From Promethearchaeota archaeon (GTDB lineage: Archaea; Asgardarchaeota; Lokiarchaeia; Sigynarchaeales; SOKP01), in assembly GCA_019057775.1 (NCBI GenBank), contig JAHLWT010000220.1:1-25987 (forward strand): DNA of 25,987 nucleotides, read 5' to 3'. The position numbers and the translations under genes were made by a program. The notes beneath the pieces were generated by a model. That model searched no databases, was not told the DNA's origin, and saw nothing but the letters and a program-made list of their open reading frames with translations. Of the stretch, positions 4,894 through 25,987 are shown in pieces (positions within the stretch are counted from its first letter, which is position 1; every line of letters begins with the position of its first letter).

Positions 4894-5643
4894 TCAATCA
4901 AAAATCTTGATTGCATTATAATCATGTAGATTCATTGATGCACAATAAAGTTCAATATTTTTAATTTTGGCATAAAGTTGTATATCTTTTTCTATATGCA
5001 CATGCCCATAAATTACTTTATTAATTAATTTTGAATCAGATAGGTGATTTAGAAACTCTTCTCCTCCAAATCGTGGATTTTTAAATACAGAAACCGTTGG
5101 AGGGTAATGCAGTAAGCATAAATTCATAGTAGTTTGTTCTACTTTAACAATTTCATTAAGCTGAGATAAGGCATTATCTAAAGCTTTTAGTTCTAATTTA
5201 TGTAATTTTAAATCTTCTTCTGTTGGCTTATTATTTGTATCAAATGCAAACCCGCGTGCCCCACAAATCCCGACTTTGATTGAATTTATTGGAAAAATTG
5301 AAGCCCTTCCTCCTATATAATAAAAACCTGGAGATGAAAATTCCTCGTACATCTTTTCTTGTATTTTATGGAATGAATTTCCAAGGCGCTCTACCCATAT
5401 ATCATGATTTCCTTCAACAAAAAACTTAATTTTTCCGGGAAGATCTCGAATAAGATTTAAACTCTCTTGAATTTCTTGAAAATCAGATCCCCAGATTAAA
5501 TCTCCTGCGATTAATAAAACTTCTGGCTCTTTTTGTTCCAAATACTCTGAAAGTCGTGTAAAATAATCCTCAGAAACTCCATATTTTTTTACTTGCGTTC
5601 GTACAGGAAGGTGAGGATCTGCTATGGTGTATATACCGGGCAT
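4894..5643 (-). CDS. Calcineurin-like metallophosphoesterase (COG1768-like)
   Basis: A 249-residue enzyme with all five metal-binding motifs of the calcineurin-like phosphoesterase fold: ADPHL (D9, H11), AGDLIWG (around 47-52), EGNHDIW (around 77-83), LLHYPP and GHVHIE near the C-terminus. The fold binds two metal ions and hydrolyses phosphomono- or diesters; the substrate cannot be read from sequence. The GNHD-I-W form and overall length resemble COG1768 predicted phosphohydrolases. No signal peptide, so cytosolic. It is the last gene of the ten-gene operon, 32 bases after the PHP gene, with only a weak GAGAAG ribosome site. No oligo-T terminator is obvious after its stop. Confidence 0.8.
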   Translation of the reverse strand: MPGIYTIADPHLPVRTQVKKYGVSEDYFTRLSEYLEQKEPEVLLIAGDLIWGSDFQEIQESLNLIRDLPGKIKFFVEGNHDIWVERLGNSFHKIQEKMYEEFSSPGFYYIGGRASIFPINSIKVGICGARGFAFDTNNKPTEEDLKLHKLELKALDNALSQLNEIVKVEQTTMNLCLLHYPPTVSVFKNPRFGGEEFLNHLSDSKLINKVIYGHVHIEKDIQLYAKIKNIELYCASMNLHDYNAIKIFD

Positions 5644-5675
5644 AAAAATTTCTTCTCAAATCAAATTTTGATTTC

Positions 5676-6575
5676 TTATTGTGTAATCCCTAAATCGGAG
5701 TCATTTAAACACAAATCAATGATTTCCTTGAAATTACAATTAATTGTGCTAAATATACTGATTCTCTTATCGTTATCTGTAATCCCTTTATATATATTGG
5801 TGGACGAGTGATGATCACTACCGATGGTGGGAATTAGGTTTTGATTCTTGCATATTTTCAATAATTTTTCATATCTCTGCTCTTCGATATGAAAAAAGTG
5901 ATGTGTTTCAACTCCCATTAAACCGTATCCCTTTAATACTTGAATTAAATCGGATACTTGTTGATCAGATAATGCTTTTCTTCTTGGTCCCTTATAAGGA
6001 TGGGCTAAAACCGGAATTCCACCAAGCTTCAATATTAAGTCAATGCTTTCCTTCAAACTGGGTCTTACGAATGGATATTTGCTTAAAATATCCTTCGACC
6101 TCGTTATTTTTTTTGCTTCACTTCTATTTTTGCAGTAATTTCTTTCGATAAGCTGTTTTATAATATATAATTCTGAGTATCCATTCAAGCTATCGAAATC
6201 TAATTGATATCCCTTCTCATTTAAGTGTAGTACAAATTCTTTTGCCCATTTTATCTTTAAAATTGACAACTCTTCATATAACTTCTTCAATAGGCTACTG
6301 TGCCAATCAAACCTGTAGCTTAAAATATCAACTCTCGTGTGAGGGGCCAAAGATTTAACATCATATCCGGAAGTTGCTGTAATTTCAAGGCCTGGGATAA
6401 CTATCATGCCAATTTTTTTACCATATTCAATAGCTTCACCTATACCGGATACGGAATCATGATCTGTTATAGCAACTACATCCAACCCAAATTCCTTTGC
6501 TGTATCTAACATTTCTTTAACAGTTTGATTGCTACAAGGGGAATGATTTGTATGGTTGTGTAGATCGATTTTCAT
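5676..6575 (-). CDS. PHP-domain phosphoesterase
   Basis: A 299-residue protein with the full set of PHP metal motifs: DLHNHT (H6, H8), ITDHDS (D38-D40), PGLEITA (E64), VLAHPY and a late GSDHH. This arrangement matches the PHP family that includes the 3',5'-nucleotide bisphosphate phosphatase / RNase AM (YciV) group, which use three metals. Hydrolysis of a small nucleotide bisphosphate or of short RNA 5' ends is therefore possible, but the PHP fold also serves other phosphatases. The middle region (about 95-190) is a helical insertion. It follows the AAA-LRR gene directly, and a strong GGAGGG ribosome site lies within the last codons of that gene, so translation is coupled. No signal peptide. 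Confidence 0.8.
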   Translation of the reverse strand: MKIDLHNHTNHSPCSNQTVKEMLDTAKEFGLDVVAITDHDSVSGIGEAIEYGKKIGMIVIPGLEITATSGYDVKSLAPHTRVDILSYRFDWHSSLLKKLYEELSILKIKWAKEFVLHLNEKGYQLDFDSLNGYSELYIIKQLIERNYCKNRSEAKKITRSKDILSKYPFVRPSLKESIDLILKLGGIPVLAHPYKGPRRKALSDQQVSDLIQVLKGYGLMGVETHHFFHIEEQRYEKLLKICKNQNLIPTIGSDHHSSTNIYKGITDNDKRISIFSTINCNFKEIIDLCLNDSDLGITQ

Positions 6576-8642
6576 CTAAAATCCCTCCAAATTATCAGCA
6601 TATTCATGCCAGATAGGATGATTTCTATATTCATCAAGAATCATTTTTGGCACCAAGATTTTTTTATTTGGGTTAGTGGAATAAAAAGCATTTACCATAA
6701 GATTTACCACCTCATCTGAGTTCAACTTGATTACTTTTAATTTTTGACAGTATCTGAATGCATTCATTCCAATTTTCTTTATCGTATACGGTAATTCTAT
6801 TCTATATATCGTATCACAAAGGGTAAAAGCCCAGTCACCGACTTCTCGAATACCTTTAGAAATGATAACTTCTTTAAGGTTTTTACACTCATAAAAAGCC
6901 CATCTGCCAAATTTTTTGATGTCCGAGAGAATAAGTATCTGTAGTGGCAGATATTGTCTCATTATGTTTTCAATTACAAATTCATCACGAATATGGATCT
7001 TTGGGATATTTATTTTGCTCAAATCATCGAAATAATAAGCGAGCACGTATCTACCACCAATTGTCAATTCCTTGATAGATTTATCATCACTCAGAATTGC
7101 TTTACCTAATTTGGATTTATTATTGATACTTACATGGGTTGTTGCTAAATTGTTCGCTAAAGCATAATCGCCGATGTATTCTGATTTAATATTAATCTTT
7201 TGAAGTGATGTGTTAAATAATGAAAAAGCTCCAATTTTTTTTGTAGATTCAATATTAATTTCATGCAAATTAGAACAATCGTAAAAAGTGCCTTTTTCTA
7301 ATGATTTGGGAAATCCGGTAACAATTTGAAGATTATTACAATACGCAAACGCACAATGTCCAAGCTCAGTGGAATCAAGATCAATTTGTTCTAATTTTTC
7401 ACACATGAAAAATGCATAATCTCCAATATGATCTACTTCTTTCAGATCAATATGATGTAAAGATTTACAATACGCAAAAACAAAGGATTCTACACTTCCT
7501 TTTAATCCCCGTATTTCCTTTAGATTAATACACTGATAGAAGGCTCCTTCGGCAACAATGCATTTTTCGTTTTTAATTGTCACACACTCAATTTCATGAT
7601 TGTTAGAAAAGGCCCAATTGGTAATCGACACATAATTTTCAGAAATAATTATATTCGATTCTTTTCCTTGGTACTTATATAAAACATTTCCTAAAGTAAT
7701 GTAATCGTCATTGTTATCTTCAAGCCATTTTGTCCCGTATAATGCACTGTTCCCTATATGCTTTATTTTTTTTCCGACGTTTATGTGCTTTAGGCGTTTT
7801 GCTCCTAGAAATGTATTTTCACCAATGTACTCTAAATTCTCCGGGAGATCTATTTTTTTAAGCGACGTGCACTTAATAAATGCATAATTTCCTATCATTG
7901 TAATAGAGTTTGGTAGTTCTATATGAACAAGTTCGTTTCGATGGTGAAACGCCCCACTTGCAATTACTTTTACGACATTTCCATTTATTTCTTCAGGGAT
8001 TTCAACAATATTCCTTCTTTTTCCTTCTTCCGTCAAACCTTTAATTTCGATAAAATCATCTTTAATGTTATATTTGATATAGCCATCATATATTCCAAAC
8101 CCACTACTTTCTGTTTTGATGCTGGAATTATTTTTATCAGATAAAACTATGATTTTGATGAAATCAAAATTTTCGTCATATATCTTTTCATATACAATAG
8201 GGGATGCACTCGATGTACATACCAGCTTAACATTCAGGAAAGTTCCATTAATGTACTTTACAAAATTAAACCAATCATTAATAAAGTGAATTTCATTTAT
8301 GAATAAATAAAGAATTTGACCTTCATTATTTAGAGTAAAATCTTTAAGAATTTTATAGACGTCAATATTAGACAGAATGGGTAAATTATAATCTAACAAT
8401 AATATTTCTTTCGGATTCTTTCCGGCAATCAATAAAGATTTTATTAAAAGACCTAGTATATTACTCTTTCCTAAGCTTGTATTACCAACTAGAAAAATAA
8501 AATCATTTTTCTCGATATAGAACGATTCTTGAACTTCATTGTAATCATAGGCGAAATTACTATCTTCAAAGTTGGTACTATCAAAATATTCTCCGATATT
8601 AAGGTCTCTAATATAATCATATATATTCAATTGAATCACCAT
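6576..8642 (-). CDS. AAA (AAA_14-like) ATPase fused to BspA-type leucine-rich repeats
   Basis: A 688-residue fusion. Residues 45-175 form a P-loop ATPase: Walker A GNTSLGKS (53-60), a Walker-B-position LFINEIH (113-119) where the usual Asp is Asn116, followed by the NDW and TSSAS sensor-like segment. This order matches the AAA_14 / DUF4143-associated ATPase domain. From about residue 212 to the end come many BspA/LRR_5 repeats of the form I-x-L-P-x-x-I-x-x-I-G-x-x-A-F-x-x-C, including several short, irregular ones. No signal peptide or membrane segment, so cytosolic. The layout, NTPase switch plus LRR sensor, is analogous to NLR immune receptors, but no N-terminal effector domain is visible. 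The Asn in Walker B suggests weak or no ATP hydrolysis. The start is uncertain: the ATG at 8642 has no SD, whereas GGTGAT (8635-8640) could place a TTG start at 8630. Confidence 0.72.
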   Translation of the reverse strand: MVIQLNIYDYIRDLNIGEYFDSTNFEDSNFAYDYNEVQESFYIEKNDFIFLVGNTSLGKSNILGLLIKSLLIAGKNPKEILLLDYNLPILSNIDVYKILKDFTLNNEGQILYLFINEIHFINDWFNFVKYINGTFLNVKLVCTSSASPIVYEKIYDENFDFIKIIVLSDKNNSSIKTESSGFGIYDGYIKYNIKDDFIEIKGLTEEGKRRNIVEIPEEINGNVVKVIASGAFHHRNELVHIELPNSITMIGNYAFIKCTSLKKIDLPENLEYIGENTFLGAKRLKHINVGKKIKHIGNSALYGTKWLEDNNDDYITLGNVLYKYQGKESNIIISENYVSITNWAFSNNHEIECVTIKNEKCIVAEGAFYQCINLKEIRGLKGSVESFVFAYCKSLHHIDLKEVDHIGDYAFFMCEKLEQIDLDSTELGHCAFAYCNNLQIVTGFPKSLEKGTFYDCSNLHEINIESTKKIGAFSLFNTSLQKINIKSEYIGDYALANNLATTHVSINNKSKLGKAILSDDKSIKELTIGGRYVLAYYFDDLSKINIPKIHIRDEFVIENIMRQYLPLQILILSDIKKFGRWAFYECKNLKEVIISKGIREVGDWAFTLCDTIYRIELPYTIKKIGMNAFRYCQKLKVIKLNSDEVVNLMVNAFYSTNPNKKILVPKMILDEYRNHPIWHEYADNLEGF

Positions 8643-9312
8643 TTAAATATACCATTTTTTTGTATAAAACGGTATATTTTTCTTTATTTATGTCCTTGTG
8701 AAAATGCCCCAAGTACCAATGGTTATATTGTATCTTCTCCTCTACCAGATCAAGATACTCATTTAAGTTTTTCTCATATTCGTTTTCGATCTCATCAATT
8801 TCATTCAACCATTTTTTAGGGGCCGTGTGAGTCAGTACATAGTCCACTGTGAAATCATTTTTCTTGAGGTTTTTTAGTCCTTCATCATATTCACTTTGTG
8901 AAGGCATTTCTTCTTCCCACATATAAACGGGTGAATCTCCACTTAGTCTTTTTATCGAAAAAGCACCTCCAAATGTAAAGAATCTTTTTTTATCAATCTC
9001 ATACACTTGACCTCTCATTAGATGGATAATTTTTATGCTAATCTGATGGATTTTGCCTCCTTTCCATTTCTTAAGAGGAAACCTATTCAAGAGGGTAAAA
9101 TTTTCGTGATTACCGTCAATAAAGAGCGTATGAAATATTTGGGAATCAAACCACTTCAGTATTTCATTGTCTTTTATTGATTCTTTCCAAATAACCCCAA
9201 AATCTCCACATATAATAAAATAATCAGTGTCAATAAGCGTTTTAAGTATGGAGCTATTTTTTATACACTCAAAATTCACAATTCCGTGGACATCAGCAGT
9301 CAAAACTATCAT
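8617..9312 (-). CDS. Metallophosphoesterase (Clostridia-type family)
   Basis: A 231-residue calcineurin-like phosphoesterase. Motifs in order: TADVHG, IICGDFG, IDGNHENF, then the family-specific HLMRGQVYEID and FTFGGAFSI segments, LTHTAP and LGHFHK. The HLMRGQ/FGGA segments recall a compact subfamily common in Clostridia and other gut bacteria, often next to mobile or accessory genes, so bacterial origin is likely. The substrate is unknown. ATG 9312 was chosen because family members start immediately before the V-x-T-x-D-x-H strand; a TTG at 9324 overlapping the upstream stop would add four residues. Its 3' end overlaps the AAA-LRR gene by 26 bases, so the two are translationally linked. Confidence 0.8.
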   Translation of the reverse strand: MIVLTADVHGIVNFECIKNSSILKTLIDTDYFIICGDFGVIWKESIKDNEILKWFDSQIFHTLFIDGNHENFTLLNRFPLKKWKGGKIHQISIKIIHLMRGQVYEIDKKRFFTFGGAFSIKRLSGDSPVYMWEEEMPSQSEYDEGLKNLKKNDFTVDYVLTHTAPKKWLNEIDEIENEYEKNLNEYLDLVEEKIQYNHWYLGHFHKDINKEKYTVLYKKMVYLNGDSIEYI

Positions 9313-9320
9313 TTTTATAT

Positions 9321-12023
9321 TCAATTATATGATTTCTTGTTTTTTATAAACTTCAGTTCGGAATGAGTGTCATCAAATATTTGATTACCTTGAAGAATTG
9401 GTATTGTATTAAGATGAATTTCCTTTAAATTTGTGTCAAAATAAAATGCTTTTTCTTGTATGATCTTTACATTGTGTAAATGAACTGTTTCTAAATGAAA
9501 GGCATCCGATAATGCTCTAAATGAAATTATTTCAACCGAACTCGGTAAGTCGAATGTTTTATCTTGCTTTGCGATAGTATATTGTAACAAAGTTTTACCG
9601 TCTTTTGAGTATAGATTACCATCTATTTCAGTATAGCAAACGTTATTTTGGTCCACATCTATGTATTTTAAACTATCACAAGAACCAAAAGCGTACTTTC
9701 CTATTTTCTCTAAATTTTGAACTACTCGTATATGCGAAATTTTGTCACATCCATGAAAACACCATTTTCCAATCTCTTGTAAAGACTGATCAAAATCAAT
9801 AGACTCTAAATTTTTACAATCATCAAATGCACTCTTTCCAATTCTTTTTATTTTTTTATTGAATATTACAGACTTCAAACTTCGAGCATTTTGGAAAGCG
9901 TACTCTCCGATTTCTGTTACTGAACTAGGAACATGGTATGTTTCTGTTTTTCGTCCAATTGGATATTTTAGAATCATAGTTTTATCCTTATTTAATAAGA
10001 CCCCATCCAAACTTGAGTAATTTTGATTGTCATTATCTACTAGAATCTTTTCCAATTTATTTGAATTATAAAAAGATTGATAATCTATAGTCTTTATGTG
10101 GTTATTTATAAATAGATTGCTTTGATGTAATTTCTTGTTCCCTTCCATTATTATAGTTTCAGAATTGTCAATCTCTATTATATTCTCAATTAAAAATTTA
10201 CTCAAACTAATTCTTGCTTCTAATATCGCTCTAATTCCCCGATTGTAATCCTGTTCTATTGATTTCTTGAATAATGTTTTTGCAATTTTCAAATCTTTTT
10301 TTACTCCAAAACCGTTTAAATAGCAGTAAGCCAAATCGCTTGTACCGTGAGAATAATTATAACCATAAGCTATTTTGAACCAGGAAACGGCTTTTTTATA
10401 ATTTTTTTTAACGCCAATTCCTTTTAAATAATTTTGTCCTACATCGCGACATGAGTGGGCATACCCTAGTTTTGCGGATTTCAACCAGTATTTAAAAGAT
10501 AATCGGTTATTTTTTTCGACTCCTTGCCCTTCCAAATAACAATAACCCAAATCACATAACGCCTCAAGATTATTCTTTTTAGCTGCCTTTTTATACCAAT
10601 AAAATGCTTCTTCATAGTCTACTAATTTTCCCAGTCCAAAAGAGAACATATCGCCATAAACGACTTGGTATTTTGAATCTCCATTCATAGCTTTTTCTCT
10701 GACATCTTCGATTATTGATGATACTAACTTTTGCGACTTTTTTCGATCCCTTCCAATAGAGTTTCCCTCAAAAAATGCGAGGGCATACCCAAAGGTCCCT
10801 CTTGAGTTTTTAAGTTCATGAGCCTTTTTATAATATTTTATACTTTTCAGTTTGTCACAGTGATAATTGATGCTTCCTAAAGAGAGTTCTTTCGCGATAT
10901 CACAATATTGTTCAGCTAAATAAAAATAATATATTTTACTGATATCATTTGCCAATTTTTGTAGATCAAAGCGCTCATGTTGAATTGTTTGTTCATTATG
11001 ATGTTGATTTATGTATTGTTGCATATTTTTAACCCATTTGTTACAATCCAAAGATAGATAAGTACACAGACCTAGGTTTGCTTCGGGAGTAATATTTTCA
11101 GACACAAAACATCTGATTCCCATCGCTTGAGCCTCAATCAAAACAATTGGTAAGCCCTCCCATAAGGATGGTAACATGAGGCACTCTGCAATGCAATAAA
11201 TTTCTGCTACATTTACATCAGGATTTAATATATGAACTCGTTCCTTTATTCCTAAATAATCTATATGATTAATTATTTTTTCCTTCAATGGGCCATGCCC
11301 TACAATAATTAAATCAATAAAGGAATTTTGCTCTGCGATTTTTTTATATACATCTAAGGAAAAAATGGGGTTTTTTTGCGCGGCAAATCTCCCAATAGAT
11401 ATAATATATTTGATATCTGCCCTAAGGTCTAGTTTTTTATAAACTTCTTGTTTGTCAATTTTATTTTTTTGAAATTTTTTGTAATCAATTCCGTAATACA
11501 TAATCTGATATGGACGTTTTCTATATAGAAAAATGCAGGCTTGTTTTGAACAGCCCAATCTGTGGGTAGCGTATTTACTAATTAACTTTCGGGAGAATAA
11601 AATTCCAATTTTTTTTGTAATTTTAATTTTTTGATTTGATTGATGGCAATGTGATATTCTGGTAGGAACACTAGCATCATGGGCCATTTTTAGATAGAGT
11701 CCGTTATTCGAGAAATAGTGCGAATGTACAACATCAAAGGGCCCTTTCTCTATGAGAATTTTTTTAAGTTTTTTGGCTTGCCCAAGTGCTCTGAATAAAC
11801 TAGTACCACGAGTATGTATGTTATATGTATTGCCTCCAAAAGATTCAATTTTTTTTTTATAATATCCATCATCAACTGCTGTATTGACAACACTTATCTC
11901 AAACTGAGCTTTATCTAATCCATTTAACAAATTATAAATGAACTTACTAATGCCGTTTATTCTCAAATTACCGCCAATGTGTAAGATTTTGATTTTATTA
12001 CTAAAAATAAACCACCTCTGCAT
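9321..12023 (-). CDS. GT4 glycosyltransferase - Sel1 repeats - BspA-type LRR fusion
   Basis: A 900-residue, three-part protein. Residues 11-320 are a GT-B glycosyltransferase of family 4: ILHIGGNLRINGISKF, VVHSHYF (donor-side His), GRFAAQKNP and the EGLPIVLIE E-x7-E motif (E289, E297). Residues about 410-600 hold Sel1-type repeats, clear in LGYCYLEGQGVEKN, YLKGIGVKKNYKKA and LAYCYLNGFGVKKD. From about 685 to the end come BspA/LRR_5 repeats. No signal peptide. Glycosyltransferase-Sel1 joins are known in Clostridia; the added LRR tail matches the LRRs of the two neighbouring operon genes. The enzyme would transfer a sugar from an activated donor to a glycan or protein, with the repeat domains choosing partners. 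The ATG overlaps the preceding gene by 23 bases; an AGAGGTGG lies just after it, so the true start is not certain. Confidence 0.8.
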   Translation of the reverse strand: MQRWFIFSNKIKILHIGGNLRINGISKFIYNLLNGLDKAQFEISVVNTAVDDGYYKKKIESFGGNTYNIHTRGTSLFRALGQAKKLKKILIEKGPFDVVHSHYFSNNGLYLKMAHDASVPTRISHCHQSNQKIKITKKIGILFSRKLISKYATHRLGCSKQACIFLYRKRPYQIMYYGIDYKKFQKNKIDKQEVYKKLDLRADIKYIISIGRFAAQKNPIFSLDVYKKIAEQNSFIDLIIVGHGPLKEKIINHIDYLGIKERVHILNPDVNVAEIYCIAECLMLPSLWEGLPIVLIEAQAMGIRCFVSENITPEANLGLCTYLSLDCNKWVKNMQQYINQHHNEQTIQHERFDLQKLANDISKIYYFYLAEQYCDIAKELSLGSINYHCDKLKSIKYYKKAHELKNSRGTFGYALAFFEGNSIGRDRKKSQKLVSSIIEDVREKAMNGDSKYQVVYGDMFSFGLGKLVDYEEAFYWYKKAAKKNNLEALCDLGYCYLEGQGVEKNNRLSFKYWLKSAKLGYAHSCRDVGQNYLKGIGVKKNYKKAVSWFKIAYGYNYSHGTSDLAYCYLNGFGVKKDLKIAKTLFKKSIEQDYNRGIRAILEARISLSKFLIENIIEIDNSETIIMEGNKKLHQSNLFINNHIKTIDYQSFYNSNKLEKILVDNDNQNYSSLDGVLLNKDKTMILKYPIGRKTETYHVPSSVTEIGEYAFQNARSLKSVIFNKKIKRIGKSAFDDCKNLESIDFDQSLQEIGKWCFHGCDKISHIRVVQNLEKIGKYAFGSCDSLKYIDVDQNNVCYTEIDGNLYSKDGKTLLQYTIAKQDKTFDLPSSVEIISFRALSDAFHLETVHLHNVKIIQEKAFYFDTNLKEIHLNTIPILQGNQIFDDTHSELKFIKNKKSYN

Positions 12024-13656
12024 CGCAATTATTTAGTGCACTAGTGGCTAATTTTGTATCTTTATAGATTTTAATTTGTTTCATCTTTTTACAACCATTA
12101 AAAGCCCAAGCTCCAATTTGTTTTACGGTTTTTGGAATGTGAATTTTCTCCAAATTAATACAACCACTGAAAACGCCTCTACTTATTTGTTGAACACCGG
12201 AAGGTATATTCAATTCTTTTAAACTTTCACACCCGGTAAATGAGTTCCTACCAATGTTGATAAGACTTGAAGGTAGTTTTACTTCCTTTTCAGCAATTTT
12301 ACTTGTACAGCATATCAACTGCGTTTTTTCACGATCCAGCAATAAACCATATTCAACAGAAAACTTTTCACTATTATTTTCAAATTCTAAATTAATACAA
12401 GATGCAAAAGGATTATATCCTATTTCTCTCACGCTTGGTGGTATTACGATTTTTTCTAATTTTCTGCAATTCCAAAAACAATTTCTCCCTATTTTCCTCA
12501 CAGTATTTGCGATTTCAAAAATCTTGTCATTCATACCCATAGAATAGTGAAAAATCTCGGTTTTTTCTTTATTGTAAAGCCCTCCTTTTTCATACATAAA
12601 GAACGGGCTTTTATTTTTTATGACGATTTCTGGACAGTCTGAAAAGACATTGTTGCCCATGAATCTTACGTTTTTTGTAATCGTGACGCATTTTAAATTG
12701 ATACATTTATAAAAACTATGCTTGCCTATCCACTCCACGGTTTCTGGAATTACATACTCTTTTCTTGGGTTCTGCGGGAAGTAATGAATTAATGTTTTTT
12801 TATTTTTATCAAATAAAACATCGTCTTCAATTATAAAATTCGGACTATGATTGAAAATTAGGAGATTATCACACCCTGCAAATGGATCATCTCCAATTTC
12901 TTCAACGCTGCTTGGAATGTTTACCTTTCTAAGATTTTTACAATAAATAAATGAATCTCCAGCGATACATGTAACCGTTTCGGATATAGTAATTTCTTTT
13001 AAAAAAAGAGTATTCCAAAATACTCCCGTATCTATTCGTTTTACACCATAAGGGATTTGGACTTTAGTTTGATAACCATTGTATTTTTTTAGTACATCAT
13101 CACGTACTTCAAATTCTTCATGGTAAATAATAGTGGATTTCTCTTGTCTTAATTCTAAGTTATACAAATTTGTATTTTTTTCAAAAATGCCTGTATTATA
13201 AACATCATCTTGTTTGTATATCGTTGAAATAAAATCAACTAGTCCCCCACTCAATTGGGACGTATATAAAGCAATAATATTATCAGAATTATGGCTATAC
13301 GAGGATATTAGGTTTTTGTAATCAACCCATCCAGAAAATAAGATGTTAAAAAGAACCTGGTTCTCATTAATAACACTTAAATGAAAACTATTATGATTTA
13401 TAAAAATATTTGCGGCTCTATATCCTTTTCTTAATAATCTATCAATACACTCCAACAGTACAAAATCCTTATATTCTTTTAATTGATATGATTTATTTTT
13501 AAAGTTGAACAACTGGTTTTCTGATTCTATTGTTATTATGATATCGTTATAGTAGAAGGCAAAAATATCAGGTTTTATTTCAATATAACCCAGTTTTCGA
13601 TACAAAATGATATACTTCATATCAATAAATAATGTGTCTCTAACGATTTTGCTCAT
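12001..13656 (-). CDS. BspA-type leucine-rich repeat protein with unknown N-terminal domain
   Basis: A 551-residue protein. Residues about 195-551 are BspA/LRR_5 repeats; clear copies are IPSSVEEIGDDPFAGC, IPPSVREIGYNPFASC and LPSSLINIGRNSFTGC. Short hairpin insertions (for example DVLFDKNKKTLIHYFP) break the array, as in surface BspA proteins of Bacteroidetes and Treponema, yet there is no signal peptide or cell-wall anchor, so it is probably cytosolic. The first about 190 residues are a mixed alpha/beta region (LLECIDRLLRKGY and following strands) that I do not recognise. Its ATG overlaps the kinase stop by four bases (ATGA), implying coupled translation. The shared repeat type links it to the two LRR fusions downstream; a scaffold or sensor role is inference. 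Confidence 0.75.
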   Translation of the reverse strand: MSKIVRDTLFIDMKYIILYRKLGYIEIKPDIFAFYYNDIIITIESENQLFNFKNKSYQLKEYKDFVLLECIDRLLRKGYRAANIFINHNSFHLSVINENQVLFNILFSGWVDYKNLISSYSHNSDNIIALYTSQLSGGLVDFISTIYKQDDVYNTGIFEKNTNLYNLELRQEKSTIIYHEEFEVRDDVLKKYNGYQTKVQIPYGVKRIDTGVFWNTLFLKEITISETVTCIAGDSFIYCKNLRKVNIPSSVEEIGDDPFAGCDNLLIFNHSPNFIIEDDVLFDKNKKTLIHYFPQNPRKEYVIPETVEWIGKHSFYKCINLKCVTITKNVRFMGNNVFSDCPEIVIKNKSPFFMYEKGGLYNKEKTEIFHYSMGMNDKIFEIANTVRKIGRNCFWNCRKLEKIVIPPSVREIGYNPFASCINLEFENNSEKFSVEYGLLLDREKTQLICCTSKIAEKEVKLPSSLINIGRNSFTGCESLKELNIPSGVQQISRGVFSGCINLEKIHIPKTVKQIGAWAFNGCKKMKQIKIYKDTKLATSALNNCDAEVVYF

Positions 13657-14234
13657 TCTATTAACCCATTTTTCTTCAATGTATCAATAATAATGTTGAT
13701 AACTTGGTTGACATCACGATTACTGCTGTCAATAAAGAGATAATTCATTTTATGTTTCTTTAAAAACCCTTCCATTTTTGGATACAATTGAGGGATTAAT
13801 TCCGTTTTTTGGATATCAGGATCATTTAAATCTCTTTTTTTTATCCGTTCAATAACAACTTCGGGAGAAGCATAAATCAAAAATGTAAAATCTGGATGTT
13901 CTAATTCATTCACTAAAAGGTTGAAAACATTTTCACTTTCATCAGCACCACTCCAACAATAATTTGATACGAGATGGCGATCTGTAATAATATTTTTATC
14001 TTTAAAATAATGATATAAGAATATATTTCCCAATCCATAGAACCAAGATGTAAAAATTTTATTGGTTTGCTTGTTTACATAGTTTCTTATTCTTATATAG
14101 TGTTTATCTTCTCCTTCTTGATCAAATAAATATTTAAGAGGCTTTTCTATGAAATTAAAATTCAATTGTTTTGCCAATTGCTTTGCAATGGTGCTTTTAC
14201 CAACCCCATCTATGCCTTCGATCGCTATATGTAT
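13653..14234 (-). CDS. Thymidylate-kinase-like P-loop nucleotide kinase, probable ATA start
   Basis: Reading back in frame from the obvious body (TTG at 14177) adds HIAIEGIDGVGKSTIAKQ, a perfect dTMP-kinase N-terminus with Walker A GIDGVGKST. The body carries TDRHLVSNY (DR motif), FLIYASPEVVIERIKKRD (the LID-side segment) and a C-terminal helix. At 193 residues it has normal dTMP kinase length. It would phosphorylate dTMP or a related (deoxy)nucleoside monophosphate with ATP. No ATG, GTG or TTG lies in frame between the stop at 14250-14252 and the P-loop. AGGTG (14242-14246) sits 7 bases before an ATA at 14234, so either ATA is the start or an ATG has mutated. The alternative is a 2-base frameshift joining it to the GTG at 14244. 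It follows the NUDIX gene by 22 bases. Confidence 0.75.
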   Translation of the reverse strand: MHIAIEGIDGVGKSTIAKQLAKQLNFNFIEKPLKYLFDQEGEDKHYIRIRNYVNKQTNKIFTSWFYGLGNIFLYHYFKDKNIITDRHLVSNYCWSGADESENVFNLLVNELEHPDFTFLIYASPEVVIERIKKRDLNDPDIQKTELIPQLYPKMEGFLKKHKMNYLFIDSSNRDVNQVINIIIDTLKKNGLIE

Positions 14235-14241
14235 ATTTTCA

Positions 14242-14246
14242 CACCT
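14242..14246 (-). promoter_or_regulatory. SD AGGTG placing the kinase start
   Basis: AGGTG on the minus strand with 7 bases before ATA 14234, directly ahead of the codons for the P-loop strand. It is the only ribosome site that reaches a start giving a complete kinase. Confidence 0.4.
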
Positions 14247-14256
14247 ATTTCAATTT

Positions 14257-14802
14257 TTATTTTTTCTTCTGTTTTTTTAGCCTTTTTAAAAAAAAGGGAG
14301 AGAGGTTATGAGAATTTATTCGTGAGAGGGCTTGTTTCAGGATTTCTTTGTCTTTATCATAAGAGAGTATATCAAGTGCCTTTTCATCCTTAAACCAAGA
14401 AATAGACTTTATTTCTGTCTCTTGCCTTTGAATTAATGTAGACGTAGGTTGTGCCAAAAAATATATTACTTCTTTAACAGTATCAATGCTCGATAAATAC
14501 GAAACTTTCTGTCTAAATCCATCAATAATATCTACTTCTAAGTTTGTCTCCTCTTTTACTTCTCTTAACGATGTTTGCTCTTCAGTTTCACTGAGATTCA
14601 TATGGCCTTTTGGGAAAGACCAATGACCCCTATTCATTTGAACTAACAAAATATATATCTCTTTAATTTCTTTTTTATATACAATTGCCCCGCATGACTT
14701 TTCGTATTTCAACAATGACTCTCCTCTATCAACTACACACTTTATTTTTTCCTCCCATCCAAAAATTACACTGAGATATGGTTTCTTCTTATGTTCTTGC
14801 AT
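14257..14802 (-). CDS. NUDIX hydrolase, Ap4A-hydrolase-like
   Basis: The NUDIX box is complete: G66-x5-E72-x7-REVKEETNL (80-88), with Asn in place of the usual Gly before the last hydrophobic residue. Flanking segments SCGAIVYK, GHWSFPKGH, KEVIYFLA and SISWFKDEKALDIL match the asymmetric diadenosine tetraphosphate hydrolase (NUDT2-like) group, which splits Ap4A to ATP and AMP; related dNTP or ADP-sugar hydrolysis is possible. The product ends in a basic KKQKKK tail. Two starts compete: ATG 14802, overlapping nrdD by 14 bases with no SD, and TTG 14712, six bases after AGAGGAGAG. The TTG would start the protein right at the domain edge (151 aa) and is better supported by the ribosome site. It lies between nrdD and the nucleotide kinase, consistent with nucleotide-pool control. 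Confidence 0.82.
   Translation of the reverse strand: MQEHKKKPYLSVIFGWEEKIKCVVDRGESLLKYEKSCGAIVYKKEIKEIYILLVQMNRGHWSFPKGHMNLSETEEQTSLREVKEETNLEVDIIDGFRQKVSYLSSIDTVKEVIYFLAQPTSTLIQRQETEIKSISWFKDEKALDILSYDKDKEILKQALSRINSHNLSPFFLKRLKKQKKK
14719..14727 (-). promoter_or_regulatory. Strong SD AGAGGAGAG favouring TTG 14712
   Basis: On the minus strand AGAGGAGAG is followed after six bases by TTG (14712-14710), in frame with the NUDIX domain and five codons before its first strand. Confidence 0.5.
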
Positions 14803-16504
14803 TATTCAATATCATATTGGGTTTGCGATGGGCCACCTCTGCTTTCTTTCCTGGTGTGAAAAATTCTGAATCTTCTAAGTATCCGGATACCCTTCTTATT
14901 CTTTGTATGTTATTGCTCCCGCATTTTCCACAGCTATCAAATGTTCCTGTAGTACTACAATCTAAGCAACGATCCATTGGAAAATTAAAACCAAGATAAT
15001 TCACATCATTAAGGATCGCATATTCAATTAACTCCGAAATTGCTTCAATATTGCTTAATGGAGCAGATTGAAATTCTATATATGTGATACATCCGCCATT
15101 ACAAAATTTATGGAATACACCTTCAAATTTAATTTTCTCAAAAGGGTTTAATCCTGAATCAACATCGACATGAAAAGAATTTGTGTAAAAATCTTTATCA
15201 ATAAGAGGATGTGAGAAAAATTTCTTGTCAATACTCGGAAAGCGGCCAGAGATAAATTCCCCTGATGTTCCTAGTAAAGAAAAATTCATATTATAATCTT
15301 TTCTATATGCATCAATTGTATCTTTCATCATTTTTACTATTTCAATGGCGATCTCGTGATTTTCTTCGGATGCAAAGTACTTTTCCCCAGTCAATAGTTC
15401 GATTGTTTCTGATAACCCTATAAATCCAACGGATAATGTTCCAGTTTTAAACACTTCCTCGAGTGAGTTTTCCTTGCTTAAATCCTTTATCATTAAATTG
15501 TATTGTAAATTGCATGAAAAGTCATCAGCATCTAACTCACAAGTCTTATAAAACCGATCAAAAAGTAGATCCTTAACAATTTCAGCAATTTCTTTCCACT
15601 TGAATTTAAACAAGTGGATTTTCTCATTCTTAGTTAGATCTGGGGGTTCTTTATCAATTTCAAGAGCAATTCTGGGAAGGTTTATTGTATTATAAACGAT
15701 ATTAGCCCTCCCAATTGTAGTATCTTCACCATGTAAGTTTTGATATACTTTTGATCGGCACCCCATTAGTGCAATTTTGGAGGGATCTACAGTAAGATTG
15801 TGATTTGAATCACTTAAAAAATAGGTTGGAATCATTTTTTTACACGTGCATTCCATCGCTAAACGAAACAAATCATAATTTCTATCAGCTTTATTATGAT
15901 TAATCCCATGCTTCAATTTAAAAATAATATTTGGTCTAATATAATCCGATGCCTTGAAACAAGTCAATACAGATGAGGTTACAAACCTACTGATTTCTCC
16001 TTTCGCTAATCCAAGATTTAATGTTACATAATATTGTACTTGCCCACATCTATCTCTAGCCTCGTTTATCCACTTTAAGAAAGAGTCAATAATATCCCTT
16101 AGAAACTGAAGATTAGTCTTATTTTTAGCAATATTTAAATTATTAAAGATAATCTCAACTTCCTCATCAAAATTAGCAATACCTATTCCACCAGACTGCT
16201 CATTACCTAACCCTACAATAATATGTTTGTAGTAGTTAAACATCTCAATCATTTTCCTAAAATCTGAATAATTAGTATATTCTTTATATGGGAATCCTTT
16301 TAGAATATTTGGTGTCAAGCAATTGTAGGTTTCACCATACGCTTCTAAATCATGTATGTGTATTCTACCTTCCAAATGTAGTCTTGAAAATCTCTCATCC
16401 AAACTGTTAAGAACGGTTTCTTTTATTTCTTTGCTTCCTCTACTGTAAACAAGCCCAACAAAAGTTTTACGTTGAGCTGCGTGTTCATAATTAATTGATT
16501 TCAA
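14789..16504 (-). CDS. nrdD: Anaerobic (class III) ribonucleotide reductase, large subunit, no ATP cone
   Basis: About 571 residues. HIHDLEAYGETYNCLTPN near the N-terminus, the MGCRSKVYQ active-site-type cysteine segment, CLDC plus CGKC near the end (zinc site, about C513, C516, C525, C528), and the RVSGYL glycyl-radical loop identify NrdD. It reduces ribonucleoside triphosphates to dNTPs without oxygen, using a glycyl radical installed by NrdG. The N-terminal ATP-cone found in many NrdD proteins is absent, so the overall dATP-off switch is probably missing. A GTG at 16513 overlaps the ribosome site itself; AAGAGGTG (16511-16518) places TTG 16504 at correct spacing, so that start was chosen. 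The gene overlaps nrdG by 14 bases and is followed by NUDIX and kinase genes. Confidence 0.9.
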   Translation of the reverse strand: MKSINYEHAAQRKTFVGLVYSRGSKEIKETVLNSLDERFSRLHLEGRIHIHDLEAYGETYNCLTPNILKGFPYKEYTNYSDFRKMIEMFNYYKHIIVGLGNEQSGGIGIANFDEEVEIIFNNLNIAKNKTNLQFLRDIIDSFLKWINEARDRCGQVQYYVTLNLGLAKGEISRFVTSSVLTCFKASDYIRPNIIFKLKHGINHNKADRNYDLFRLAMECTCKKMIPTYFLSDSNHNLTVDPSKIALMGCRSKVYQNLHGEDTTIGRANIVYNTINLPRIALEIDKEPPDLTKNEKIHLFKFKWKEIAEIVKDLLFDRFYKTCELDADDFSCNLQYNLMIKDLSKENSLEEVFKTGTLSVGFIGLSETIELLTGEKYFASEENHEIAIEIVKMMKDTIDAYRKDYNMNFSLLGTSGEFISGRFPSIDKKFFSHPLIDKDFYTNSFHVDVDSGLNPFEKIKFEGVFHKFCNGGCITYIEFQSAPLSNIEAISELIEYAILNDVNYLGFNFPMDRCLDCSTTGTFDSCGKCGSNNIQRIRRVSGYLEDSEFFTPGKKAEVAHRKPNMILNNART

Positions 16505-16946
16505 TTTTTCCACCTCTTAGATCAATAAATTTTTGGTTATTTGAACCCATAAAAGGGATAATTGTACTTCTTTGTTCTTTAATATATTTACCAAATTTAA
16601 TATAATCGAGATAATGTAGAATTTCTTTTGGCACATAATCAAATTCAAAACCAGTATAAAGTACGATATTAAAATCATCTAAATTTTTAACTAATTCAAG
16701 AACCGCTGGGTATTGTGAAAGAGGTTCTCCTCCAGATATGGTTAGTTTCTTATTCAAACTTTTTTTTCTTAAGTCATCCACAATGTCCTCTATTTCAAAC
16801 TCTTTTCCCTGATCAATATCCCATGTGCTTGGATTATGACAATCTTCACATTTTCGACTGCAGCCTTGTACAAATAATACTGTTCTAATCCCTGGCCCAT
16901 CTACAATAGAACCGCTATAATCAATTGAATTGATAACAATCTTCAT
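16491..16946 (-). CDS. nrdG: Anaerobic ribonucleotide reductase activating enzyme (radical SAM)
   Basis: A 151-residue radical SAM protein. The cluster motif is GCSRKCEDCHN (C29, C33, C36), preceded by VDGPGIRTVLFVQG, and followed by ISGGEPL (SAM binding). Length and motifs match NrdG, which uses a [4Fe-4S] cluster and S-adenosylmethionine to form the glycyl radical on NrdD. It is the first gene of the operon, with GGTGAT about six bases before the ATG and a TATA-like element about 70 bases upstream. NrdG and NrdD usually sit side by side; the other genes in this operon are not usual partners. Confidence 0.92.
   Translation of the reverse strand: MKIVINSIDYSGSIVDGPGIRTVLFVQGCSRKCEDCHNPSTWDIDQGKEFEIEDIVDDLRKKSLNKKLTISGGEPLSQYPAVLELVKNLDDFNIVLYTGFEFDYVPKEILHYLDYIKFGKYIKEQRSTIIPFMGSNNQKFIDLRGGKIEIN
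16511..16518 (-). promoter_or_regulatory. SD AAGAGGTG deciding the nrdD start
   Basis: The minus-strand AAGAGGTG contains the only nearby GTG, which therefore cannot easily be the start; six bases later comes the in-frame TTG 16504. Confidence 0.45.
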
Positions 16947-17298: not shown

Positions 17299-18264
17299 AT
17301 GAACTGGTCTATATCTAAAGCTAAAATTTTTTCGAAATGCCAAAGAAAATGGTTTTATTACGAAATTATGGCAAGAAAAAATAGTAAAGATAAAGATAGA
17401 TTTGAAGCCTATGTTTTAAAACAGTTAGGAAGCATTCATGCTTGGAGAGGGAAAATTGTCGACCAAGTTATCGAAAATCTTTTGGTTCCTGAATTTAATA
17501 AAAGCAATGTTCCTCCCTTTGATGAAATTGAAACTTTTGTTTCTGAGTTAATGAAAAAGCAATTAGAATTCGCAAAACTAAGGAAATATAGAGATCTTAA
17601 GCTAACTAAGAAGAAGGCAGGTGACAGTTATTGCGCTCTACGCGAAATAGAGAACTCAGAGGGATTAGATAACGACTCTGTTGAAAAAATAAAGGAACAA
17701 GTAATAATATCTTTAAAAAATTTACTCCAATCAGAGCTTATGAAAACCCTTTTAGACTCCGACACAGTCTTAGTTGCTCAAAAGAATCTCAATTATAAAT
17801 TCCAAGAGTTTAATATCATTAGCCGCCCAGATTTAATCGTTTATTTCAGGGATGAACCACCTATGATCATTGATTGGAAAGTCTATTTTTTTAGAACAGA
17901 GAATGCACGGATGCAACTGGGAGTTTACGCTATCGCTCTAACAGAATGTATATCAACTGATCCTTTCCAGAAACCTATTGATGATCCAACAGAAATAAGA
18001 TTAATTGAATATCAACTCTTAAAAAATTTTCAAAGAAACTATAAACTCACTTCTTCAGATGTCTGTAATATTAAAGATTATATCAATATTTCTTCAAAAG
18101 ATATGGGTAAGCTAATAAATAATAAGAAATACCATGAATTTGATATAAATCAATTTAAAATGGCTTATACGTCAGAATCATGTGAATATTGTAATTTTAA
18201 AAGCCTTTGTAGGAATAGGAAAGTAAAATATCAAGTTAACTTAATGAATTTTATCAATAATTAG
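17299..18264 (+). CDS. Cas4/RecB-like PD-(D/E)XK nuclease with Fe-S cysteines
   Basis: A 321-residue PD-(D/E)XK nuclease. The active site is visible as H48 (motif I), RPDLIVY (D178) and MIIDWKVYF (D192, K194), followed by the MQLGVYAIAL helix (Q206, Y210) typical of the Cas4/RecB/AddB branch. Four cysteines, C14 in SKCQRKWFY plus C295, C298 and C304 in SCEYCNFKSLC, are placed as the [4Fe-4S] ligands of that branch. The family cuts single-stranded DNA ends in repair, recombination or CRISPR adaptation. No CRISPR array or cas1/cas2 gene is in the window, so a repair or defence nuclease is as likely. It begins a short plus-strand unit with the Smr gene 26 bases downstream. The ATG has only a weak AGAG upstream. 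Confidence 0.8.
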   Translation: MNWSISKAKIFSKCQRKWFYYEIMARKNSKDKDRFEAYVLKQLGSIHAWRGKIVDQVIENLLVPEFNKSNVPPFDEIETFVSELMKKQLEFAKLRKYRDLKLTKKKAGDSYCALREIENSEGLDNDSVEKIKEQVIISLKNLLQSELMKTLLDSDTVLVAQKNLNYKFQEFNIISRPDLIVYFRDEPPMIIDWKVYFFRTENARMQLGVYAIALTECISTDPFQKPIDDPTEIRLIEYQLLKNFQRNYKLTSSDVCNIKDYINISSKDMGKLINNKKYHEFDINQFKMAYTSESCEYCNFKSLCRNRKVKYQVNLMNFINN

Positions 18265-19743: not shown

Positions 19744-20568
19744 CTATGATTTATTATCTTTTTGAAGGAGTTTTTTTATCTCTGGATTATTTATTGGAAT
19801 ATGCAAGTCTTTCATATGATATGGTAGGAATAATTGGTTGCAAATATCAGCGTAGGCATAAGCTTTAGCTTCTTTTTTTTTTAATCCATTACCTTTTCCA
19901 TAGTATTTCTCTTCGGGGAAAAATTCATGTGTTTTTATCCAAACTTCGCTATAAAACGGAGGTGCAATAACCTCTGATTCTTTAAAATTTATTTCAATTA
20001 AGCCTTTATCTTCTAATTCCTTAAGTGCGTTTATCGGATTTTTTGGTTCTATTCCTAATTCCTTATAAAGTTCTTGGAACTTATCTCTTAATTTAATTTC
20101 ATCGGCATTCTCAAGATCATCAAACAATTCATAATAATCTCGCTCTTTTTCTTTTATATCTAAATCCCAGTAATTTAAATCATCGGTTATTATATCCCAT
20201 CTTCGCTTAGTTACAGCTATGCCTTTTATTAGTTTGACATCATTTTGAATTCCTTTGAACAATTTCATGTATTTTAACGTCTGCTGCCTAACTTCTTGTG
20301 CGTTCTTGTTTTTACATTCTACAATTAAAAAATTGTTTTTCCCATCTGTAAATATTAGATCTCCTTTACCCTTATTGGATAGACCAGGTTCAACCTCCCA
20401 TTCATAATCAAAAACAAATTTGAATTTACTAAATTCCGGTTTTTTCTTTGCTAGATCCTGGACAACTTCTTTAACTATAAGAAATTCAGGATTCTTATCC
20501 CAATTTTTTGATAAAATGTAAGAGCGAATTGTTTTATCTCTGTGCTTTATTTCTTTATCAATTTTCAT
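19744..20568 (-). CDS. PD-(D/E)XK nuclease fused to a dsRNA-binding domain
   Basis: A 274-residue protein. The first half has a PD-(D/E)XK nuclease core: GKGDLIFTDG (Asp of motif II), FLIVECKNK (E-x-K, about residues 84-86) and a following helix QEVRQQTLKYM, giving D-(E-x-K)-Q. The last about 70 residues before a short tail (about 176-246) read as a double-stranded-RNA-binding motif: NPINALKELEDKGLIEI, APPFYSEVWIKTHEFF, then YYGKGNGLKKKEAKAYA, where G-x-G and KKxAK match the third RNA-contact region. The usual GPxH of region two is APPF, so one contact is altered. A GTG at 20577 overlaps the GGAG ribosome site; ATG 20568, eight bases after it, was chosen. It lies 80 bases downstream of a zinc-ribbon NYN nuclease gene on the same strand. 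Confidence 0.7.
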   Translation of the reverse strand: MKIDKEIKHRDKTIRSYILSKNWDKNPEFLIVKEVVQDLAKKKPEFSKFKFVFDYEWEVEPGLSNKGKGDLIFTDGKNNFLIVECKNKNAQEVRQQTLKYMKLFKGIQNDVKLIKGIAVTKRRWDIITDDLNYWDLDIKEKERDYYELFDDLENADEIKLRDKFQELYKELGIEPKNPINALKELEDKGLIEINFKESEVIAPPFYSEVWIKTHEFFPEEKYYGKGNGLKKKEAKAYAYADICNQLFLPYHMKDLHIPINNPEIKKLLQKDNKS

Positions 20569-20648
20569 TAATTTCACTCCAATTTTTCATTTAAATTATC
20601 TTCTTTTTTCTTAAATAATTAAAATCTTAATTTCCTATTATGAATTAC

Positions 20649-21770
20649 TTATTGCTTATCAAAGAATTTCATGATGCCAAGAAATTTGATATCATCTATA
20701 TTATATTTTTCATAAATATCAGACGTGTTAATTCCAAGAATCCGAGATTTAATTTTTTTATAACTCGCTATCCGCATAACAGGTAAATAATCCTTATCGC
20801 TACTCACAATGATAAAACCTTTAATCTCACACCTTTCAAGGATTTCTACACTATTAGCGATTAAGTAGTTATCGATGTCACTATATCCTACTCCTTTTAA
20901 AACTTTTAGAAGATGGAAAAACTCCCTTTTCTGATTTTGAGTACAAAAATTAATGATGATATTATTAGGAATCTCGAGGTCCTTAGCGGGTTTTGAAAAG
21001 TACCTAATGATATAATTGTCCGATGTTTGAAAAGAATTTTCTATATACTGTAATAATAACAGATGAGCTTTTTTCAAGACATTCTCGAAGTCACGTGGAA
21101 AAAATTCTCTCAGAGTGCGAATAAAATTAGGGAGATCGACTAAACATACTACCTTATCCTGGTGGTGTTCCAAGAACTTACTATATTCATCATTATTCAT
21201 GGTTAGTAATGGAATCTCCTCTATTTTATATATCTGCTCCACGCTTTCTGTTTCTTGAGAATCCTTTGATATAGATTCGATTTTATCTTCGATTTCAATT
21301 TTAGGTAAGTGTTTTTCTTTAATTGGTTTCTCAATTATTTTAGAACCTGGCCTATTTGAATCTAACATATCTTCAAATAATCTGACCCGTGGAGATTTAC
21401 TTTCCCAATTATTATTACTAAAATCATAGCAGTATGGGTCAATATTTGATTCACATAACTTAACATTACACTTAAAAATTAATTTTAAATTCTGATTCTC
21501 GTCAATTTTGAATTCACGATGCAAAGGTTCCTGACAAGTGTCGCAATATCCTCCAAATGCCTCTTCATCTTGAATGTATTTATTTAAAATTATGAATGGG
21601 ATATTTTTTTCTTCACAATTTTTATTCCAGCAACGATATTGAATATAAAACTCATTGGAATCTAACTTTTTTACCTGAGTTTTAAAGCAGAAGGGACAAT
21701 AAACTCGTTTCTTATAATAATTCTTCTGGATATCGATTGTTTCTACTTCCGATTTTAATAAAAAATACAT
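20649..21770 (-). CDS. Zinc-ribbon and NYN (PIN-like) domain protein, likely ribonuclease
   Basis: A 373-residue protein. The N-terminal 115 residues hold two Cys4 ribbons: C25, C28, C47, C52 and C76, C79, C101, C106. A charged, probably disordered linker (about 130-190) leads to a C-terminal NYN/LabA-type domain: VVCLVDLPNFIR (D212, N215), GVGYSDIDNYLIAN (D298, D300) and IIVSSDKDYLPVM (D325, D327). These acidic positions are those of the PIN/NYN active site that binds divalent metal and cuts RNA. A strong GGAGGGG precedes the ATG. It is the first gene of a two-gene minus-strand unit with the dsRBD nuclease. Likely role: RNA processing or degradation with the ribbons choosing substrate; the substrate is unknown. 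Confidence 0.75.
   Translation of the reverse strand: MYFLLKSEVETIDIQKNYYKKRVYCPFCFKTQVKKLDSNEFYIQYRCWNKNCEEKNIPFIILNKYIQDEEAFGGYCDTCQEPLHREFKIDENQNLKLIFKCNVKLCESNIDPYCYDFSNNNWESKSPRVRLFEDMLDSNRPGSKIIEKPIKEKHLPKIEIEDKIESISKDSQETESVEQIYKIEEIPLLTMNNDEYSKFLEHHQDKVVCLVDLPNFIRTLREFFPRDFENVLKKAHLLLLQYIENSFQTSDNYIIRYFSKPAKDLEIPNNIIINFCTQNQKREFFHLLKVLKGVGYSDIDNYLIANSVEILERCEIKGFIIVSSDKDYLPVMRIASYKKIKSRILGINTSDIYEKYNIDDIKFLGIMKFFDKQ

Positions 21771-25374: not shown

Positions 25375-25987
<613 letters not shown>

What the first reader, a model, noticed from the sequence alone, without database searches (positions are those of the whole stretch)
4894..16946. Ten-gene operon mixing class III RNR, nucleotide enzymes, phosphoesterases and three LRR proteins
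Seen: ten same-strand genes with overlaps or gaps of at most about 32 bases apart from the nrdD-NUDIX-kinase start uncertainty. They encode NrdG, NrdD, NUDIX, dTMP-kinase-like, LRR, GT4-Sel1-LRR, metallophosphoesterase, AAA-LRR, PHP and a second metallophosphoesterase. Known: nrdDG supplies dNTPs; NUDIX, PHP and calcineurin-type enzymes destroy nucleotides or phosphoesters; NTPase plus LRR is the layout of NLR-type sensors. Inference: a cassette in which LRR proteins sense something (a phage or a stress ligand) and coupled enzymes reset or deplete nucleotide pools, or an accessory glycan/nucleotide pathway acquired from gut-type Clostridia. I know of no described system with this set.
Basis: partly seen in the sequence, partly recalled or inferred. 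Interest (0 to 1): 0.78.

Follow-up and report, generated by a model that had tools for sequence, protein, structure and literature searches.

The report
RNR–LRR cassette in Asgard archaea
Some Asgard archaea, and a gut phage, carry the same small set of genes that couples a spare DNA-building-block enzyme to repeat proteins built on a restriction-enzyme scaffold; it looks like an undescribed conflict or defence cassette, and what it does is still untested.

The parts
16491..16946 (-). NrdG-like activase, CxxxCxxC present
   Evidence: Fer4_12 5e-29; NrdG 2e-32, 112.1 bits, under the curated cut-off 126.1
14789..16513 (-). short class III RNR (NrdD) without N-terminal extension or ATP-cone; catalytic Cys, Gly-radical and Zn motifs kept
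   Evidence: (NrdD over its cut-off)
14257..14802 (-). NUDIX hydrolase, Nudix box intact; among the cassette loci seen, only here and in G102 (L032)
13653..14234 (-). dNMP kinase (thymidylate kinase/dNK-like); the only start position in frame before the P-loop is ATA at 14234
12001..13656 (-). LRR_5 protein with type IIB/IIG restriction-enzyme-like N-terminal domain (residues 13-166), catalytic residues lost
   Evidence: (relatives)
9321..12023 (-). GT4 glycosyltransferase - Sel1 repeats - LRR_5 fusion
   Evidence: 73% identical in G102
8617..9324 (-). calcineurin-like phosphoesterase 2 (motifs intact, no Pfam hit)
   Evidence: 73% identical in G102
6576..8642 (-). AAA_14 P-loop ATPase fused to LRR_5
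5676..6575 (-). PHP phosphoesterase, nearest families 3',5'-nucleoside bisphosphate phosphatase and RNase RNM (far below their cut-offs)
4894..5643 (-). calcineurin-like phosphoesterase 1, also the last gene of the methylase-type cassette in L001, L002 (cut by the contig end) and L003
17299..18264 (+). divergent PD-(D/E)XK Cas4-like nuclease, found only in two cassette carriers among 65 genomes of the family; possible part of the island

Best explanation
This is a variant of an accessory, horizontally moving conflict (defence-type) cassette. Shown: its core is an RNR activase, a class III RNR that lacks an N-terminal regulatory domain, a dNMP kinase, and an LRR_5 protein on a type IIB/IIG restriction-enzyme scaffold whose catalytic residues are mostly lost. 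In most loci where it can be seen this is followed by a type III Mod-like methylase (short of the target-recognition insert in the one tested), and several loci have a phosphoesterase. In the window the methylase is absent and a block GT4-Sel1-LRR / phosphoesterase / AAA-LRR / PHP takes its place. Inferred: the LRR proteins bind an invader or stress protein. They then direct the linked enzymes (methylase, or GT / ATPase / phosphoesterases). The RNR and kinase raise or sustain dNTPs without the dATP brake, so that DNA synthesis or repair of the host or element goes on when pools are attacked, or so that a (deoxy)nucleotide signal is made that the NUDIX, PHP and metallophosphoesterase enzymes remove.
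For: Core order in 9 of 9 loci where the kinase's downstream side is visible. NrdD and kinase in the same 6 of 227 genomes. 32 exact contig-length coincidences between the 120 NrdD and 120 kinase hits listed, against a mean of 0.56 (largest 5) in 1000 jitter controls. Another RNR in at least 5 of 6 carriers. Same five genes in gut phage NatCom_17901 beside two serine recombinases, and NrdG-NrdD-phosphoesterase-kinase beside two serine recombinases in L054. Restriction-enzyme fold at residues 13-166. Defence-type neighbours: Cas4-like nuclease, Cas_APE2256 and a CARF-wHTH gene in L003. Block exchange visible in identities: against L003 NrdD 83% but kinase 57% and LRR 41%; against G102 kinase 82% but NrdD 66%.
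Against: No functional test exists. No PADLOC model (2023 set) matches the cassette as a system. Defence-type neighbours are seen for few loci (L003, the window flank, G102), and the third carrier of that family, G002, gave no hit for the Cas4-like gene. In G038 the genes beyond the methylase are, by eye, not defence genes. An RNR supplies rather than destroys dNTPs, which is unlike known depletion systems. The kinase start codon in the window is ATA, so this copy may be weakly translated or decaying. In G102 nrdGD lies on the opposite strand, facing PHP, so the two halves need not share a transcript. P-loop relatives of the AAA part alone occur in five other Asgard genomes (G036, G086, G094, G161, G166).
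Confidence: 0.45

Rival explanations
1. Replication-support module of mobile elements: an unregulated RNR plus kinase feeds element DNA synthesis and the methylase masks element DNA. The LRR protein only holds the methylase, and there is no immune sensing.
For: Phage and serine-recombinase carriers. NrdD lacks the ATP-cone, as phage T4 NrdD does (PMC11226230, passages). The methylase keeps DPPY and the SAM motif.
Against: With the phage kinase as query, 1 of 50,697 phage records matched, the phage itself, and 1 of 72,556 plasmids, at 28% identity. The Asgard copies lie in MAG contigs with no phage genes noticed. The window lacks the methylase but keeps LRR proteins and has GT, AAA-LRR and PHP genes, which replication support does not explain.
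Confidence: 0.25
2. A degenerate restriction-modification system that has been captured behind nrdGD: the LRR protein and methylase are R-M remnants, and the RNR genes are an ordinary second RNR.
For: N-terminal domain homologous to type IIG enzymes. Catalytic residues incomplete in 15 of 19. Type III Mod-like methylase.
Against: The fold, an invariant Trp and the long LRR are kept, and the order is the same in Loki and in a gut phage although NrdD is 48% and the LRR protein 34% identical between them. A remnant would hardly stay a unit over that distance or be joined by two more LRR proteins.
Confidence: 0.15
3. Accessory metabolism: a nucleotide or glycan pathway operon with no link to conflict.
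For: GT4, NUDIX, PHP and phosphoesterases are common metabolic enzymes; cassette GC (0.309) is close to its surroundings (0.281 and 0.319).
Against: I know of no substrate pathway that unites RNR, methylase and restriction-scaffold LRR proteins; patchy presence (6 of 227); a phage copy; block swapping.
Confidence: 0.12

Closest known systems
Type IIB/IIG restriction-modification enzymes (BsaXI and relatives)
   Different: LRR_5 follows in place of the fused methylase part; catalytic D-(D/E)-K complete in only 4 of 19; methylase separate or, in the window, absent
Type III restriction Mod subunits (EcoP15I Mod, 6k0w Mod, Mbo45V)
   Same: the methylases of the sister cassettes match their catalytic halves
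   Different: in the L053 methylase 30-35 residues lie between the aligned halves where 6k0w and EcoP15I Mod have 114 and 145, so the target-recognition insert is missing; no Res gene noticed beside it
Class III RNR of phage T4 (NrdD without ATP-cone)
   Same: class III family and motifs (one search matches the T4 structures); no ATP-cone (T4 statement from PMC11226230, passages)
   Different: a separate, mostly archaeal NrdD family of about 550-580 aa, next to the kinase or LRR genes in the loci read here
Kongming and other nucleotide-signal immunity
   Same: a deoxynucleotide kinase step feeds immunity (PMC12948488, one passage)
   Different: RNR and LRR proteins have no counterpart there; KomA/B/C were not searched for specifically; analogy only
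NLR/STAND sensors
   Same: P-loop ATPase followed by LRR in 6576-8642
   Different: only a short AAA_14 P-loop domain; no NB-ARC/NACHT match and no effector domain in the Pfam scan

Membership tests
Restriction-modification system (type IIG/IIB) | PD-(D/E)XK nuclease domain with complete catalytic residues | tested here: not met
   window protein has lost all three residues; complete in 4 of 19 aligned proteins; the fold itself is kept
Restriction-modification system (type IIG/IIB) | methyltransferase fused to, or partnered with, the nuclease | tested here: not met
   absent from the window and from L032; in L001, L002, L003, L034 and L053 it is a separate gene, so there the 'partner' form may hold
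Restriction-modification system (type III Mod) | target-recognition domain inside the methylase | tested here: not met
   L053 methylase: 30-35 residues against 114 (6k0w) and 145 (EcoP15I) between the aligned halves
Class III ribonucleotide reductase | catalytic Cys pair, glycyl-radical motif, Zn site, and a CxxxCxxC activase | tested here: met
   (motif patterns recalled); activity itself not tested
Class III RNR with allosteric activity control | N-terminal ATP-cone | tested here: not met
   no N-terminal extension and no PF03477 match in the window, L053, L054, P0041 or P0072; control: the long NrdD in L163 matches ATP-cone at 6e-19, but that in L160 does not at 0.001 despite its extension
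NLR/STAND immune sensor | STAND NTPase (NB-ARC/NACHT with winged-helix part) plus LRR plus effector domain | tested here: not met
   Pfam finds AAA_14 and LRR families only; structure of this protein not predicted
Known anti-phage defence system | match to a catalogued system | tested here: inconclusive
   only weak single-gene hits, e.g. PDC-M51B and VakA for the kinase, PDC-S07 and PDC-S10; library of 2023
dTMP kinase | curated NCBIfam dTMP kinase score | tested here: not met
   59.1 bits against a cut-off of 83.25; Pfam Thymidylate_kin and dNK both over their cut-offs; P-loop and DRxxxS present, so a dNMP or deoxynucleoside kinase of unknown substrate

The most novel reading that the evidence does not exclude
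A new cross-domain immune system in which a feedback-resistant anaerobic RNR and a dNMP kinase generate or sustain a deoxynucleotide signal or pool, under control of LRR proteins evolved from restriction enzymes. The LRR domain stands in for the methylase's missing target-recognition domain, and effectors are swapped as modules (methylase, GT-Sel1-LRR, AAA-LRR).
Probability: 0.2. Interest if true: 0.9.

Novelty: categorically new. Interest (0 to 1): 0.62.

Why it matters
If the conflict reading is confirmed, it would be, as far as my searches and recall go, the first such system built around ribonucleotide reduction. It would show LRR proteins derived from restriction enzymes shared by Asgard archaea and gut phages, which bears on the origin of LRR-based immunity and on how dNTP pools are fought over. 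It also gives a directly testable set: five genes in a gut phage that can be moved into a laboratory strain. The novelty rating is for the gene set as such; if it proves to be an R-M remnant it would be a variant of a known kind.

Tried and rejected
Rejected: the operon as ordinary housekeeping (this NrdD family is in 6 of 227 Asgard genomes, and at least five carriers have another RNR). NLR identity for the AAA-LRR gene. Clostridial origin of the RNR core (organism-named hits archaeal apart from one contig taken as mis-binned and one unnamed metagenome; the gut phage NrdD is 48% identical). The LRR protein as an active nuclease in the window. A common phage cassette: with the phage kinase 1 of 50,697 phage records matched, itself.

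IMG/VR scans: the window NrdD alone found none. A mixed NrdD alignment found 10 loci, of which only L054 (61%) was read; the other nine are 30-37% identical and were not inspected. The kinase alignment found the L054 contig again and one 28% hit, L065, not followed. The LRR alignment found two weak hits, L066 and L067, not followed. The methylase alignment matched 374 loci, 80 kept, not inspected one by one; the list cannot show whether any is a cassette.

Led nowhere: tRNA and Rfam scans empty. Promoter counts at chance. Paper searches with combinations of the gene names returned 0 papers, in an open-access library only. Heliusvirales gave one unrelated review, seen as a listing; searches gave nothing used beyond listings. 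A sequence search of the N-terminal domain against PDB chains gave only a chance hit. Foldseek on the full LRR model listed LRR proteins, and in the viral library also a few other repeat or uncharacterised proteins; the restriction fold came only from the second aligner, whose note advises folding the domain alone, which I did not do. A test for overlap of contig ends in G102 and G038 found none, so adjacency of those contigs stays an inference. The AAA part, residues 1-200, had no match in phages. The first 508 residues of the GT-Sel1-LRR protein gave generic glycosyltransferases in plasmids; bacterial relatives of it are not excluded.
Full report
Observation. Catalytic motifs (patterns recalled) are intact in NrdG, NrdD, the NUDIX enzyme, the GT4 and both calcineurin-type enzymes; the AAA P-loop and the start of the PHP signature are also present, as is the kinase P-loop (seen in the alignment; my pattern was written wrongly and missed it). 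The kinase has only ATA (14234) at the start position used by relatives.

Host. No whole genome is held for the window. Close relatives of NrdD (83-84%) lie in two Lokiarchaeota MAGs and in a contig binned as Patescibacteria. That contig carries archaeal-looking genes (by eye) and an N-formylglutamate amidohydrolase-like protein 78% identical to the window's, so I take it as mis-binned Loki DNA.

The recurring cassette. In L001, L002 and L003 the order is NrdG - NrdD - kinase - LRR protein - N6/N4 DNA methylase - phosphoesterase, the last cut by the contig end in L002. A search of 227 genomes of the phylum found the NrdD in 6 (E <= 1e-40), the kinase in the same 6 (E <= 1e-12), and the LRR protein in 10 (E <= 1e-3): the same six plus G057 (a 1284-aa protein matching the N-terminal domain only), G091, G113 and G194 (repeats only). 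Neighbourhoods of the other four carriers: G055 and G159 show NrdG-NrdD-kinase-LRR before the contig ends; G038 shows the same on one contig and LRR-methylase on another; G102 shows NUDIX-kinase-LRR-GT4Sel1LRR-phosphoesterase-AAALRR on one contig and AAALRR-PHP facing NrdD-NrdG on another. The two AAA-LRR pieces are complementary (residues 1-92 and 102-688 of the window protein), but the contig ends do not overlap, so their adjacency is inferred. Counting loci where the base after the kinase is visible (window, L001, L002, L003, L032, L035, L036, L037, L053), the LRR ORF follows in 9 of 9. The methylase follows the LRR gene in 5 of 7 visible cases (L001, L002, L003, L034, L053; not the window or L032).

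Outside Asgard. Human gut phage NatCom_17901 (PV036423.1) has NrdG-NrdD-kinase-LRR-methylase next to two serine recombinases. It was the only one of 50,697 phage records matched by its kinase. One IMG/VR contig (L054) has two serine recombinases, then NrdG-NrdD-phosphoesterase-kinase to the contig end; its recombinases are 42% and 51% identical to the phage's. Among the 120 NrdD hits and 120 kinase hits listed (of 3298 and 613), 32 longest-contig lengths coincide exactly, against a mean of 0.56 and at most 5 in 1000 jittered controls. The coinciding contigs include ones whose proteins are named Methanosarcinaceae, Methanomassiliicoccales and Heimdallarchaeota. Whether an LRR gene follows in those archaea could not be checked; of the 14 LRR hits only 3 contig lengths coincide with the NrdD or kinase lists. 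This is the weakest point of the claim that the LRR gene is core outside Asgard.

An extra RNR. PF02867 (class I/II RNR) is in 90 and NrdD (PF13597) in 160 of 227 genomes at E <= 0.001. Of the six carriers, G038, G055 and G159 have a class I/II RNR, and G003, G055, G102 and G159 have a second, long NrdD. For G002 the listing was cut and did not show its other two NrdD matches. The window NrdD is about 29% identical to the long NrdD of G003 over 219 residues and has no N-terminal extension. ATP-cone is detected clearly in G055's long NrdD, marginally and under the cut-off in G159's, and not at 1e-3 in G003's or G102's; it is detected in none of the short NrdDs scanned (window, L053, L054, P0041, P0072). 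T4 NrdD is reported to lack it too (PMC11226230, passages). That the enzyme escapes dATP inhibition is inference.

Block exchange. Window against L003: flank nuclease 96%, NrdG 87%, NrdD 83%, phosphoesterase-1 63%, kinase 57%, LRR 41%. Window against G102: kinase 82%, LRR 76%, PHP 74%, GT 73%, phosphoesterase-2 73%, AAA-LRR 63-70%, NrdD 66%, NrdG 61%, NUDIX 59%. The kinase-to-PHP block and nrdGD therefore seem to have different recent histories. That is the pattern of modular exchange, and it means nrdGD and the rest need not be transcribed together everywhere.

Surroundings. The divergent gene 17299-18264 matches PADLOC's Aga_Cas4-like nuclease (4e-89; I have no other evidence of an Argonaute link). 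In the 65 genomes of G003's family it occurs in G003 and G102 only, both carriers; the third carrier G002 lacks a hit. L003 also has Cas_APE2256 (2e-35) and, divergent from nrdG, a CARF-wHTH-like gene (weak Pfam, PADLOC CARF 1.7e-11) whose counterparts are seen by eye in L001 and L002 but not in the window. A PHP close relative (74%) occurs only in G102 of 227, with distant PHP proteins in 40 others. The terminal phosphoesterase occurs in G002 and G003 and, at 40-41%, in two genomes in other contexts. The AAA part has P-loop relatives alone in five other Asgard genomes.

Mechanism. Shown: composition, accessory status, presence in Asgard genomes and in a gut phage, restriction-enzyme origin of the LRR protein, module swapping. 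Inferred: LRR proteins sense or recruit; the RNR and kinase raise or sustain dNTPs or a signal; phosphoesterases and NUDIX turn over nucleotides. Three phosphoesterases with no significant pairwise similarity beyond one marginal match (E 0.007) occur in the set (window 1 and 2, L054), which suggests that such an activity is wanted; this is inference.

Against my reading: no functional data, few loci with clear defence neighbours, a possibly impaired kinase start in the window, and G102's different orientation. In print: searches returned no paper combining these genes, in an open-access library only. Of the papers cited, PMC11226230 was seen as an abstract start and passages and PMC12948488 as one passage.

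Noticed in passing
14234 (minus strand): Kinase start position is ATA in the window where relatives have TTG or ATG; the next in-frame canonical start (14177) would remove the P-loop.
   Followed up: partly
17299-18264: Divergent Cas4-like nuclease (PADLOC Aga_Cas4-like_Nuc, 4e-89) shared only with two cassette carriers among 65 genomes of the family; no Argonaute gene was noticed in the window, but none was searched for specifically.
   Followed up: partly
22452-23455: ADP-ribosylglycohydrolase reading is split between two overlapping frames, near an AGCAACAACAACAG stretch; a frameshift in the sequence or the gene.
   Followed up: no
about 25889-25930: A run of some 40 A ends a helicase-like ORF (by eye) in poly-lysine; looks like an assembly or sequencing artefact.
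   Followed up: no
L001: Contig binned as Patescibacteria (AMOR_Bin_1762) carries the Loki cassette and archaeal-looking genes; probably mis-binned.
   Followed up: partly
L161:411-5471 and L163:891-5195: Long, presumably housekeeping NrdD genes of two carriers (G102, G055) contain inteins (Intein_splicing; in L163 under the cut-off).
   Followed up: partly
L003:8296-9039, L002:2501-3244, L001:3631-4371: CARF-wHTH-like gene divergent from nrdG in the three sister loci, absent from the window; could link the cassette to cyclic-oligonucleotide signalling.
   Followed up: partly
L174 (G102 contig 303): Cas4-like nuclease gene lies with an ATPase, a DprA-like protein and an acetyltransferase pair (all by eye), a defence-like cluster.
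   Followed up: no
19744-20577 and 20649-21770: Two minus-strand genes without Pfam or PADLOC hits that look by eye like a PD-(D/E)XK protein and a NYN/PIN-type protein.
   Followed up: no
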